DNA of 64,000 nucleotides from Pseudarthrobacter cellobiosi. Its GTDB lineage: Bacteria > Actinomycetota > Actinomycetes > Actinomycetales > Micrococcaceae. Below the pieces are notes generated by a model, which did not search any database, had not been told where the DNA came from, and saw nothing but the letters and a program-made list of their open reading frames with translations. Both the position numbers and the translations under genes were made by a program. The DNA lies in the NCBI RefSeq assembly GCF_023913755.1, contig NZ_JAMXBJ010000047.1, positions 62,001 to 126,000 of the forward strand. Reading direction: 5' to 3'. Below, piece after piece: positions 48,742 to 53,732 of the stretch (its first letter is position 1; every line of letters begins with the position of its first letter).

Positions 48742-49242
48742 ATGCCGCTGGACGAGGACGTGGTGGCCGCGATCTACCGCGAACACGGCTCCGCCCTGCG
48801 CCGTTTTGTGCTCAGCGCCTCCCGCGACCCGCAGCTGGCAGAGGACGTGGTCCAGGAGACCGTGCTGCGGGTCTGGCAGCAGGCCCCGGACATCACCGGA
48901 AGCCTCCGCAGCTACCTGTTCCGGACCGCGCGGAACATCATGATCGACAACTACCGCAAAGCCCAAAGGCGCCCGGCCGAAGTGATGGAACGCGAACTCG
49001 CCGATCCCTCCGAGGCCGTGGAACGCGTGGATGAACTCCTGAACCGTGTGCTGATGGAAGAGGCGCTGCTGCGGCTCAGTACCGAACACCGCGATGTCCT
49101 CGTCGCGCTCCACTACCGCCGTTTCACCGTCAACGAGGCCGCCGTGCAGCTGAACATCCCCAGCGGAACCGTGAAGTCCCGCGCCTTTTACGCAGTCCGG
49201 GCGCTGCGGACCATCCTGGACGAGATGGGGGTGGAGCCGTGA
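48742..49242 (+). CDS. ECF sigma factor (SigL/SigK-like)
   Basis: 166 residues. Region 2: YREHGSALRRFVLSASRDPQLAEDVVQETVLRVWQQ and RSYLFRTARNIMIDNYRKAQRRP; region 4: LSTEHRDVLVALHYRRFTVNEAAVQLNIPSGTVKSRAFYAVRALR. It overlaps the anti-sigma gene by 4 bases. The anti-sigma is a cytoplasm-facing zinc-binding domain protein, so the pair follows the SigK/RskA or SigL/RslA plan of actinobacteria. A likely autoregulated promoter lies 117 bases upstream. Confidence 0.94.
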   Translation: MPLDEDVVAAIYREHGSALRRFVLSASRDPQLAEDVVQETVLRVWQQAPDITGSLRSYLFRTARNIMIDNYRKAQRRPAEVMERELADPSEAVERVDELLNRVLMEEALLRLSTEHRDVLVALHYRRFTVNEAAVQLNIPSGTVKSRAFYAVRALRTILDEMGVEP

Positions 49243-49904
49243 ACGCCTCTGAGCTGCACCAGCTGCTGGGCGCCTACGTGCTCGGCGGGCTTGACCCCGC
49301 GGATTCGCAACGTTTCGAAGCCCACCTTGAGGACTGCGCGGACTGCCGGACCGAACTCGCCGAGCTTGAAAGCCTGCCGGCCCTGCTGGACGCGCTTCCC
49401 GTCCCGGACGCGGTGGCGCTCACCGGGAGCGCCCGCCCCGCGGTGGCCCCCGAGCCAGCCAGCTCCGTGCCGCGCAGGGTCCTCGACGAACTGGCCACCC
49501 GGCGTCGTAAACTACGACGGCGGTGGGCGGCCGTGGTGGGCGCCGTCGCCGCGGCGTCCCTCGCCTTGGGGGTGGCCGCGGCCCCGCTGCTGAGCCGGCC
49601 GCCGGAGCCGGACGCCAGCTACTCGGTTCAGTCCGGCAATGGCCTGCAGTTCAGCATTGACCTTGCCCGGAAAACCTGGGGCACCGAGCTGGCCGTGAAC
49701 GGCAGCAAACTGCCGCTGGACGGGACCCTCTCGCTCTGGGTCCGGGACCGCGACGGCGGCGAAGACCGGGCGTGCGCCTGGACCGCCACGCCCAGCGGGA
49801 GAGTGAAGGTCATGGGCGCCACGCCCCTACAGCTGGCCAGCATCGCCAGCCTGGAACTGCGGGACGAAACCCAGCGCGCCGTTGCTGTGATTACGGTGCC
49901 CTGA
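49239..49904 (+). CDS. Anti-sigma factor, zinc-finger zf-HC2 type
   Basis: 221 residues. The zinc-binding anti-sigma motif HLEDCADC has His29, Cys33 and Cys36 (HX3CX2C) within LGAYVLGGLDPADSQRFEAHL. One membrane helix near residues 97-115 (RRRWAAVVGAVAAASLALGVAA) follows a basic stretch; the outside domain has a RskA-like pattern ending in a short beta domain. It binds the ECF sigma at the membrane and releases it after a signal. Translationally coupled to the sigma gene. Confidence 0.93.
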   Translation: MNASELHQLLGAYVLGGLDPADSQRFEAHLEDCADCRTELAELESLPALLDALPVPDAVALTGSARPAVAPEPASSVPRRVLDELATRRRKLRRRWAAVVGAVAAASLALGVAAAPLLSRPPEPDASYSVQSGNGLQFSIDLARKTWGTELAVNGSKLPLDGTLSLWVRDRDGGEDRACAWTATPSGRVKVMGATPLQLASIASLELRDETQRAVAVITVP

Positions 49905-51571: not shown

Positions 51572-53161
51572 ATGACTTTTTACGGCGCGGACGTCAGCCA
51601 GCTGCGGGAGCTGGCGAAGGCCGTGGACAAGGCGGCCGCGCTGCTCAGCAGCCGGGCCAGCTCCCTGCAGGGCCAGATCCAGTCCGCGCCATGGAAGGGC
51701 ACCGACGGCGAGCTGTTCCGGCAGGACTGGTCCGGCAACCACCGCCCCAGCCTGGAGCGGGTGGCATCCAGCCTCCGCCACAACTCCAAGCTGCTCCTGC
51801 AGCACGCAAACGAACAGGAACAGTCCTCTGCCGCGACCGGCGGCGGCGGTGGCGGTGGCGGGACCAGTGTGCTGGACAGACTCAAGGACCTGGGCAGCCG
51901 CGCGCAGAACTGGCTGGAGGAACAGGTAGCGAAGGCGGCAGCGGCTGAGGCCCACCGCCATGAGCTGAAGGGGGACATGGATGGCATGCTCAAGGCCAGC
52001 CCGGAAGAGCAAGCCAAGTGGTGGGCCAGCCTGTCCGAGGAGGACCGGAAATACCTGATCGAAGGCGAAGACGAGAACGGCCCGTTCGCCGAGGACCTCA
52101 TGAGGATGGACGGCGGGGTTCCCCAGTCCGCCCAGGATCAGGCGAGTGCCCACCTCCGGGAACTCGCCAAGACAGAAACCCCCGTATACACGGAGTCCGG
52201 CAAGGCCTCCCTTGATGCCCGGGTTGCCTGGTTCCACGCTGGCGCGGAGGTGGGCACCGTCGTCGTAGAGAATGCAGACGGTTCGGCCACCATGAAGGTC
52301 TACGGGAACGTGGGCGTAGGAGTGAACGACACCACCGGCACCGCCGGCGTCACGTTGAACGGGGAGGCCTCGCGCGAGTACAAATTCGGCAGCCTGGAGG
52401 AGGCCATGGCCGCCCGCAACCAGATTTATACGGATCTCCCGCCGGACAGCGTCGGTGAGATCAAGGATGTGGCAGGCAACCCGCCCGGCTACATTCTGGA
52501 CACCATCAGCGATGCTGCGGACGACAACGGCTCCACCGGCCACGACGACAAAGCCAAGGGAACGCTCTCCCTCGAAGCCAAAGGTGAATCCGGCCCGGCT
52601 TCGGGCTCGGCGAAGCTGGATCTTGCCTACGAGCGGAACCTGACGGACGCCACGGCCACCGCCAGCGCCGAGGTGTCGGCCCAGGGCAAGCTGGACCTTG
52701 ACGGCAGGGTGTTCGAGGCCTCAGGCAAGGGCGGCCTGGAAGTGAACCTGGATAAGAACGGCAACATGGAATCGGTCGCCGTATCCATGGAGGGCACGGT
52801 TGCCGCGGGCGCCAGCACGGGTGCCGACCTCCAGGGCACAAAGGCTGAGTCCAGCGTGACAGTGGGCACTCAGGGCACCGTGAAGATCAATGTTGAGTAC
52901 TCGCCGGAGAACGCGCCTGTGATCGATAGCTACATGCGCAATATGGCGTTGGGAGACACGGTTGCGGCCGGCCACGACGCCGCCAAGCTCTACGCGGCAG
53001 GTTCCGCCACGGTCCAGGTGAACAGTGTGGTGACAGCATCCAACGAGTTCGGCGTTGACCTCAAGGCCGGCGAGGTGGAGGTCAAAACCGAGAACAAGGC
53101 AACCACCAACGTGTCCACGTACTATAAGGTCCCGAACGACACCAAGCTCGAGAAGCTCTGA
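51572..53161 (+). CDS. WXG100-headed, beta-rich large protein, candidate type VII secretion substrate
   Basis: 529 residues. Residues 1-85 form a WXG100-like two-helix hairpin: an Ala/Leu helix, the turn APWKGTDGELF with Trp41-Lys-Gly43, then a second helix SLERVASSLRHNSKLL. A Gly8 linker (90-97), an about 100-residue helical part, and from about residue 200 a long region of alternating strands (GTLSLEAKGESG, KLDLAYERNL, GSATVQVNSVV) follow. No Sec signal is present. WXG100 heads target proteins to ESX/type VII export. No secretion genes lie in the window. GGGGGAGA precedes the ATG. The 148-residue gene downstream may be a partner. Confidence 0.72.
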   Translation: MTFYGADVSQLRELAKAVDKAAALLSSRASSLQGQIQSAPWKGTDGELFRQDWSGNHRPSLERVASSLRHNSKLLLQHANEQEQSSAATGGGGGGGGTSVLDRLKDLGSRAQNWLEEQVAKAAAAEAHRHELKGDMDGMLKASPEEQAKWWASLSEEDRKYLIEGEDENGPFAEDLMRMDGGVPQSAQDQASAHLRELAKTETPVYTESGKASLDARVAWFHAGAEVGTVVVENADGSATMKVYGNVGVGVNDTTGTAGVTLNGEASREYKFGSLEEAMAARNQIYTDLPPDSVGEIKDVAGNPPGYILDTISDAADDNGSTGHDDKAKGTLSLEAKGESGPASGSAKLDLAYERNLTDATATASAEVSAQGKLDLDGRVFEASGKGGLEVNLDKNGNMESVAVSMEGTVAAGASTGADLQGTKAESSVTVGTQGTVKINVEYSPENAPVIDSYMRNMALGDTVAAGHDAAKLYAAGSATVQVNSVVTASNEFGVDLKAGEVEVKTENKATTNVSTYYKVPNDTKLEKL

Positions 53162-53224
53162 CGTCCCGTGCCGGATCCGCATGTGCCAGCCAGCCCAGCC
53201 AAGACTTACCGCTAAGGAGCAACC

Positions 53225-53671
53225 ATGTCAGTTCATATCGAGTCCCCGCTGGGATTCACGGCAGACTTCCCCGAGCACACCCAGGTTCTGGAGGACTCCG
53301 CCGCCGGGCCAAACACCGAGCAGTATGGCCTGCTGGGCGGTGTCCTGGTGACGGTCATCAAGGACGACACCTCCGTGACCGGCGCCGCGCAGGCCAACGG
53401 CTGGGCACACCTGATGTCAGGCTTCTACCTTGAAGACCGGGCCGGGACCATCCTCACCGAAGGCGAACTGAACGCACCCGGTAAGTCCTCGTACGCCGTC
53501 GTGGTTGGATACACGGATCCGGCGGGCGAGGCGAGGGTCGCGGCCACTGTGGGAGTCTGGGAGAACAACCGTTTCATCGGTGTTGTGGTGATCTGGCCGT
53601 ACGTGAACCCGGAGATCGAGCCGCGGCTGGGGATGCTCAAGGAGATCGTCGCCTCCATCAGCGTGAACTGA
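53225..53671 (+). CDS. Small hypothetical protein downstream of the WXG100 protein
   Basis: 148 residues, no signal or membrane helix. Beta-rich: HIESPLGFTADFPEHTQV, GVLVTVIKDDTSVTGAAQAN and AEARVAATVGVWENNRFIGV alternate charged and hydrophobic residues, with a final helix MLKEIVASISVN, a PsbP/DcrB-like impression. It starts 63 bases after the WXG100 gene on the same strand and ends at the shared hairpin, so the two are probably co-transcribed. Chaperone, immunity or co-secreted roles are all possible; none is shown. Confidence 0.6.
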   Translation: MSVHIESPLGFTADFPEHTQVLEDSAAGPNTEQYGLLGGVLVTVIKDDTSVTGAAQANGWAHLMSGFYLEDRAGTILTEGELNAPGKSSYAVVVGYTDPAGEARVAATVGVWENNRFIGVVVIWPYVNPEIEPRLGMLKEIVASISVN

Positions 53672-53678
53672 CCTCAAC

Positions 53679-53732
53679 TAAGTAGCGCTAACTGCCGTTT
53701 TGAGCCTTCAAAACGGCAGTTAGCGCTACTTA
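53679..53732. terminator. Long hairpin element, copy 2: 25-base perfect stem
   Basis: The left arm runs 53679-53703 and the right arm 53708-53732, fully complementary with a 4-base loop. The core GCCGTTTTGA/TCAAAACGGC is shared with copy 1, and AGTAGCG appears in both. It lies between convergent genes and is probably a bidirectional terminator. Confidence 0.85.

What the first reader, a model, noticed from the sequence alone, without database searches (positions are those of the whole stretch)
51572..53671. Orphan WXG100-headed protein with a large beta-rich body plus a small partner gene
The first 85 residues form a WXG100 hairpin (Trp41-Lys-Gly43), followed by a glycine linker and over 300 residues of regular strand pattern with no named domain. 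The next gene encodes a 148-residue beta-rich protein and both end at the same hairpin. WXG100 heads direct export by type VII systems, but no ESX machinery is here. This could be an undescribed secreted surface polymer or effector with its chaperone or immunity partner.
Basis: partly seen in the sequence, partly recalled or inferred. Interest (0 to 1): 0.62.

Follow-up and report, generated by a model that had tools for sequence, protein, structure and literature searches.

The report
WXG100-headed barrel protein with chaperone-like partner
A soil-bacterium gene pair encodes a protein that looks built for export by a type VII secretion system, with a body predicted (not confidently) to fold like a membrane pore, plus a small partner shaped like known secretion chaperones; in the genomes tested, the pair is inherited together and was intact only where that secretion machine's motor gene was found.

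Summary
ORF A (51572-53161, 529 aa) has a WXG100 head, a variable linker, a conserved WW segment and a 326-residue body; ORF B (53225-53671, 148 aa) follows, and both end at one strong hairpin. "Orphan" needs correcting: no type VII machinery lies in the window, but the same genome has an FHA-EssC/kinase/PP2C/Ig-repeat (T7SSd-like) locus on another contig. Among 101 genus genomes A and B occur in the same 44, all with the orthologous EssC; none of the 21 genomes without it has the pair. The pair persists in three further Micrococcaceae genera (A 36-52% identical). Of 14 more pair genomes tested, 13 have EssC; the one without has a broken A. B is confidently predicted (pLDDT 91.5) as a Mog1/PsbP fold, shared with T6SS Eag chaperones and some T6SS immunity proteins. 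A's body is predicted, with low-to-moderate confidence, as a porin-like antiparallel barrel; its amphipathic strand pattern holds in orthologues not used for the model, but low aromatic content argues against a classic outer-membrane barrel. Best reading: a fixed, vertically inherited T7SS substrate with a dedicated cytosolic chaperone. Export, complex formation and membrane activity are untested.

The parts
51572..53161 (+). ORF A, 529-aa WXG100-headed protein
   Evidence: orthologues
51572..51826 (+). residues 1-85: WXG100-like head (W41-K-G43)
   Evidence: TIGR03930 E 1.6e-4, below cut-off; W41, G43 invariant; dN/dS 0.157
51827..52000 (+). residues 86-143: glycine run and variable helical linker
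   Evidence: dN/dS 0.474, least constrained part; helix 100-139 in the model
52001..52180 (+). residues 144-203: conserved WW..LS segment
   Evidence: W150, W151, L154, S155 invariant in 16 diverse sequences; profile A4 found nothing convincing outside A in 39 genomes
52181..53158 (+). residues 204-529: amphipathic beta-rich body, predicted porin-like barrel of about 12 strands with two helical insertions
   Evidence: low-to-moderate model confidence
53225..53671 (+). ORF B, 148-aa Mog1/PsbP-fold partner
   Evidence: pLDDT 91.5; fold matches; co-occurrence
53680..53731 (.). palindromic hairpin between B and the convergent Methyltransf_4 (trmB-like) gene, likely terminator in both directions
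   Evidence: neighbour

Best explanation
A is a substrate of the genome's T7SSd-like type VII secretion system. The WXG100 head addresses it to the FHA-EssC ATPase; the body is an amphipathic antiparallel beta structure, probably a barrel, that works outside the cytoplasm. B is a cytosolic, dedicated chaperone/adaptor of the Mog1/PsbP fold that holds A export-competent, working like the T6SS Eag chaperones. The cargo is a fixed, vertically inherited envelope or extracellular component, not a swapped polymorphic toxin. Shown by computation: the pair, its strict co-occurrence, its link to EssC, B's fold (prediction), strand amphipathicity, purifying selection. Inferred: export, the A-B complex, the chaperone role of B, and whether the barrel inserts in a membrane.
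For: A and B are found in the same 44 of 101 genus genomes and together in 14 of 14 further fetched loci, 13 of them from three other genera. All 44 have the EssC orthologue; 0 of 21 genomes without it have the pair (Fisher p 9e-7, not corrected for phylogeny). EssC is found in 13 of those 14 further genomes (in two pieces in G482); the exception, G534, has a broken A. Own T7SS locus: EssC matches nearly the whole TIGR03928 profile at E 2.7e-161 (below cut-off); FHA, kinase, PP2C, Big_9/fn3 repeats. Neither A nor B of the window has a hydrophobic segment of signal-peptide or TM strength (maximum 19-residue mean hydropathy 0.93 and 1.22; no signal-peptide predictor was available), so Sec export is unlikely. 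B's fold: Apa Z 13.1, CyanoP 11.9, TplEi 11.4, DcrB 10.9, Tsi3 10.8, SciW 9.7, EagT6 8.4. A-B gap is 1-5 nt in 12 of the 25 named loci measured. Body dN/dS 0.20, B 0.17. DUF1206-A-B-trmB order in 25 of 27 named loci, a 26th with A broken.
Against: No export or binding data. The head is below curated WXG100 cut-offs and lacks the YxxxD/E motif (motif recalled). The A-EssC link may reflect shared ancestry of clades. 36 of 80 EssC genomes lack the pair, so it is not a core part of the machine. G482 has an intact A while its EssC is in two frames (real break or sequencing error, not settled). EssC was not tested for the 27 named loci or for six same-genus genomes first met. The Mog1/PsbP fold is also used by immunity proteins. 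B has no sequence match to DUF1795/DcrB. B stayed intact in all four genomes where A looks broken, as immunity genes may.
Confidence: 0.55

Rival explanations
1. Effector-immunity pair: the body is an antibacterial (perhaps membrane-active) toxin and B neutralises it in the producer.
For: Order effector then small partner; T6SS immunity proteins Tsi3 and TplEi share B's fold; A broken with B intact in L060, L121, L126 and G075.
Against: The body is not polymorphic: one architecture under purifying selection, and at one locus in the genus. B of the window has no TM or signal-like segment, so it could act only in the cytosol, odd for a membrane toxin (one distant B, L123, does reach a 19-residue hydropathy of 2.3). 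Four of four breaks falling in A is expected by size alone with probability about 0.37 (A is 78% of the coding length; own arithmetic), and some breaks may be sequencing errors.
Confidence: 0.25
2. A is a soluble secreted amphipathic beta protein (adhesin or lipid carrier with the hydrophobic face inside), not a membrane barrel. (This is about the body only and can be true together with the best explanation.)
For: Aromatics 4.9% vs 13.5-17.9% in five E. coli outer-membrane proteins; small hydrophobics V/A/G dominate the hydrophobic face; the organism is taken to be monoderm (recalled); the alternation scan overlaps other proteins.
Against: The top structural matches of the model are integral barrels, CymA Z 15.3, OmpG 14.5, but the model is weak.
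Confidence: 0.4
3. A is cytosolic and the WXG100-like head is incidental; A-B is a house-keeping complex unrelated to secretion.
For: Locus lies beside a trmB-like gene, on another contig than the machinery; head below cut-offs.
Against: Link to EssC; W41/G43 kept down to 36% overall identity; the same head sits on other, unrelated bodies in these and other actinobacterial genomes.
Confidence: 0.12

Closest known systems
T7SS substrates with WXG100/LXG heads (LXG toxins such as TelE; EspB)
   Same: helical WXG100-like head in front of a larger body, small gene next door
   Different: body is beta-rich and not polymorphic; partner is Mog1/PsbP fold, not an alpha-helical Lap or EspG-like chaperone (those partners as described in PMC11217815, passages)
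T6SS Eag (DUF1795) chaperones EagT6, SciW
   Same: fold (Z 8.4-9.7), size, gene adjacent to cargo
   Different: no sequence match to the family; cargo lacks PAAR and TM helices; genome with a T7SS
T7SSd of Actinomycetota (PMC11217815, passages read)
   Same: FHA-EssC, Ser/Thr kinase and large Ig-repeat protein in the own genome's locus
   Different: locus also has PP2C and further FHA proteins; the paper's main text names neither Arthrobacter nor Micrococcaceae (supplements not seen)
Monomeric porins CymA and OmpG
   Same: predicted barrel architecture of residues 193-524 (Z 14.5-15.3)
   Different: no signal peptide seen, low aromatics, about 12 rather than 14 strands (14 recalled), two helical insertions, 8% identity in the structural alignment, confidence low

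Membership tests
WXG100 | W-x-G turn | tested here: met
   W41 and G43 invariant in 16 sequences
WXG100 | score above curated cut-off | tested here: not met
   14.2 vs 27.3 bits; 21.8 vs 44.85 bits, window protein; hence 'WXG100-like head', not a member by score
WXG100 | helical hairpin | tested here: inconclusive
   helices 8-38, 44-53, 61-87 but block-mean pLDDT 40-60
WXG100 | YxxxD/E export motif after the hairpin (recalled, mycobacterial ESX) | tested here: not met
   no Tyr between W41 and residue 160
T7SSd machinery in own genome | EssC-type ATPase with N-terminal FHA | tested here: met
   FHA 129-189, FtsK_SpoIIIE, TIGR03928 E 2.7e-161 below its cut-off
T7SSd machinery in own genome | Ser/Thr kinase TsdD | tested here: met
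   Pkinase E 1.1e-39; orthology to TsdD not tested
T7SSd machinery in own genome | large Ig-like TsdI | tested here: met
   2058-aa frame, 11 Big_9 stretches and 3 fn3; orthology to TsdI not tested
T7SSd machinery in own genome | TsdA WXG100 at the locus | tested here: inconclusive
   fragment lacking the N-terminal part near EssC; intact copy on another contig
T7SSd machinery in own genome | TsdH single-TM protein | tested here: inconclusive
   189-aa Pro-rich candidate, no Pfam match
Eag/DUF1795 chaperone (ORF B) | Mog1/PsbP-like fold | tested here: met
   SciW Z 9.7, EagT6 Z 8.4
Eag/DUF1795 chaperone (ORF B) | sequence match to DUF1795/DcrB model | tested here: not met
   none of 17 members hits it at E<=0.1; window B none at E<=1
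Eag/DUF1795 chaperone (ORF B) | cargo with PAAR and N-terminal TM helices | tested here: not met
   no PAAR hit; maximum 19-residue hydropathy of A 0.93
Outer-membrane beta-barrel | closed antiparallel barrel | tested here: inconclusive
   CymA Z 15.3 but block-mean pLDDT of the body 29-83
Outer-membrane beta-barrel | Sec signal peptide and high aromatic content | tested here: not met
   no signal-like hydrophobic segment; aromatics 4.9%
Polymorphic toxin | variable C-terminal domain on a constant head | tested here: not met
   same body in the orthologues; the head family as a whole does carry other bodies

The most novel reading that the evidence does not exclude
A T7SSd-like system of a monoderm actinobacterium exports a porin-like beta-barrel, kept soluble by a Mog1/PsbP-fold chaperone, which then inserts as a channel into its own envelope or a neighbour's membrane: a T7SS counterpart of the T6SS Eag strategy, with a beta-barrel cargo.
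Probability: 0.2. Interest if true: 0.85.

Novelty: new variant of a known kind. Interest (0 to 1): 0.57.

Why it matters
It gives a concrete candidate substrate and candidate chaperone for a T7SSd-like system in soil bacteria, and a candidate case in which type VII export uses the same chaperone fold as type VI. If the body is a membrane barrel, it would be an unusual channel or pore for a monoderm. The full-text search for 'type VII secretion' with 'Arthrobacter' returned 16 papers, 15 of them listed, none of whose titles or abstract starts describes such a system (the papers were not read).

Tried and rejected
Known enzyme or named domain for the body: none credible in Pfam, NCBIfam or PDB sequences. 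Known sequence family for B: none. Mobile-element origin: no plasmid match for B (tblastn), no phage match for the body (blastn, DNA only), and conserved synteny. Surface polymer: nothing found. The WW segment as a shared T7SS module: I recalled a similar motif in WXG100-headed actinobacterial hydrolases, but profile A4 found only A and four weak hits (E 0.025-0.055) in 39 genomes, so I make no claim. B-like partners beside other WXG100-headed proteins: none convincing in 29 loci scanned, most with only about 1.5 kb of flank (the only real hits are the window's own pair in L067). Composition scan to separate membrane from soluble beta: body 3.37 per 100 residues (five orthologues 1.75-3.85), six outer-membrane proteins 2.35-4.30, 62 other E. 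coli proteins 1.79 +/- 0.57, maximum 3.49: overlapping, not decisive. The controls were picked by hand from five fetched regions; short proteins and most integral inner-membrane proteins were left out. Indel positions: 11 insertion/deletion sites in the body of 15 orthologues against the window; 10 in loops or within three residues of a predicted strand end, one inside strand 478-497, where the model is poor. Left out of the A alignment as broken: L055, L060. G030, possibly the same strain as L055 (inference), also has its EssC in pieces, so sequencing error is likely there; it is still counted in the 44 and the 80. In one search the 25 loci include L055.

Full report
Observation. ORF A (51572-53161) and ORF B (53225-53671) are real, adjacent and co-directional, and end at a long hairpin (folding z-score -9.9) between B and a convergent Methyltransf_4 (trmB-like) gene. 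Window = G000:C30:62001-126000; the named orthologues are Arthrobacter/Pseudarthrobacter (27 loci).

Distribution. A was found in 44 of 101 genus genomes (42 as one frame, 2 split: G030, G075) and B in 44 of 101, the same ones. A match to A or to its head alone is commoner, 81 of 101; the head also sits on unrelated bodies of various sizes. A body-only profile finds 27 of 295 family genomes in 4 of 32 genera. Of the 13 from three other genera, the 10 that I aligned have A 36-52% identical to the window and B 26-44% (for A, G439, G488 and the broken G534 were left out; for B, G439 and G488 were left out, and G534, 39%, is included). A B homologue lies next to A in 14 of 14 fetched loci (those 13 plus G554). 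Class-wide, the narrow profiles find full A and B in the genus only (2 of 296 genomes each; another 13 of 296 match the head alone); a broader B profile finds 5 of 317 genomes of the order, all in the same family.

Secretion machine. The own genome carries, on contig 27, an EssC-like ATPase with FHA domain (1481 aa), Ser/Thr kinase, PP2C, RDD-FHA and FHA proteins, and a 2058-aa Ig/fn3-repeat protein. This resembles the T7SSd described for Olsenella in PMC11217815 (passages read). The EssC orthologue (74% identity or more, in pieces in G030 and G053) is in 80 of 101 genus genomes; all 44 pair genomes are among them and none of the 21 others has the pair (Fisher p 9e-7, uncorrected for phylogeny). 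Three of those 21 (G010, G050, G085) do have a distant, 31-32% identical EssC-like protein, so the link is to this EssC, not to any T7SS. Of the 14 further genomes with the pair, 13 have EssC, one of them (G482) in two frames although its A is intact; G534 has none at E<=1e-30, and there A is split by a frame change and a stop.

Structure. B: pLDDT 91.5, order E E E E E H E E E E H E, Foldseek/VIA matches to PsbP, Mog1, Apa, DcrB, Tsi3, TplEi and Eag chaperones. Zhang et al. 2012 (PMC3482391, passages read) proposed PsbP/MOG1-like proteins as adaptors between T6SS toxins and the injection apparatus; Eag chaperones bind effector transmembrane domains (PMC7773334, passages read). A: mean pLDDT 58.1, pTM 0.43; body modelled as 12 long strands with helical insertions between 275 and 318 and between 448 and 476. 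VIA puts CymA and OmpG first (Z 15.3 and 14.5; rmsd 4.7 and 4.8; 239 and 233 residues). Foldseek itself is weak (best E 5.5e-4, TM below 0.3 on the query). Check outside the model's input: with face parity fixed on six near sequences, ten distant orthologues keep the hydrophobic face in all 12 strands (mean difference 0.958, shuffles 0.003 +/- 0.115). This supports amphipathic strands, not necessarily a membrane barrel; aromatics are only 4.9%, and which face points outward could not be read because no coordinates were available.

Selection and losses. dN/dS medians over pairs of 26 sequences (269-324 of 325 pairs used, those with dS 0.1-1.5): head 0.157, linker 0.474, WW 0.181, body 0.202, B 0.173. 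Neighbours DUF1206-A-B-trmB are kept in 25 of 27 named loci (L055, with A in two frames, included); L060 has the same neighbours with A broken, and L056 showed only A and B. A looks broken with B intact in L060 (about 1.05 kb deleted, mostly body, plus a frame change), L121, L126 and G075; sequencing error is not excluded in any of them.

Mechanism. Most likely a T7SS substrate (A) plus cytosolic chaperone/adaptor (B). Head recognition by EssC, export, A-B binding and the outside function are inferred. Chaperone over immunity: fold analogy, no signal or TM segment in B, non-polymorphic conserved body. Against: immunity proteins with the same fold exist, and B outlasts A. The T7SS membrane-disrupting effector TelE is modelled as mostly alpha-helical with a glycine zipper (PMC10434224, passages read), unlike this body.

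Novelty. Searches for T7SS with beta-barrel/pore-forming terms (15 of 62 papers listed), DUF1795 with chaperone/LXG (15 of 127), PsbP/Mog1 with T7SS (12 of 54) and WXG100 with porin terms (12 of 113) listed no title or abstract start describing a Mog1/PsbP-fold partner or porin-like body for a T7SS substrate; I saw those listings plus the passages named above, so this is not proof of absence. I file it as a new variant of a known kind.

Noticed in passing
L064:238-11450 and L132:3041-14241 (G000 contig 27): T7SSd-like locus with kinase, PP2C, several FHA proteins and a 2058-aa Ig/fn3 protein beside MoxR-like, DUF58 and transglutaminase genes and an NAD-dependent DNA ligase gene; a possibly phosphorylation-linked T7SS in Arthrobacter.
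   Followed up: partly
L064:12282-12572: The WXG100 next to EssC lacks its N-terminal part; an intact stand-alone WXG100 sits on contig 45 (L066:6548-6811).
   Followed up: partly
L065:2564-4048 (G000 contig 24): Second large WXG100-headed protein (494 aa) with an unrelated body and no B-like neighbour.
   Followed up: no
L071, L084, L077, L079, L080, L088: The same head family carries bodies with long hydrophobic, glycine/alanine-rich stretches in other actinobacteria (read by eye): candidate membrane-active T7SS substrates.
   Followed up: no
at least G008, G010, G034, G048, G050, G060, G067, G078, G080, G085, G099: A second, about 31-33% identical EssC-like protein (open frame about 1430-1480 aa) occurs in some genus genomes, in G010, G050 and G085 without the first; the listing was cut, so there may be more.
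   Followed up: no
window 53680-53731: Long palindrome between B and trmB; its 12-base core was found in 5 of 135 fetched loci (L001, L060, L067, L068, L094), four of which are the window's own site.
   Followed up: partly
window 48742-49904: Sigma-70/ECF-like factor followed by a zf-HC2 protein, in the same neighbourhood in most named orthologous loci; a regulatory link to A-B is untested.
   Followed up: no
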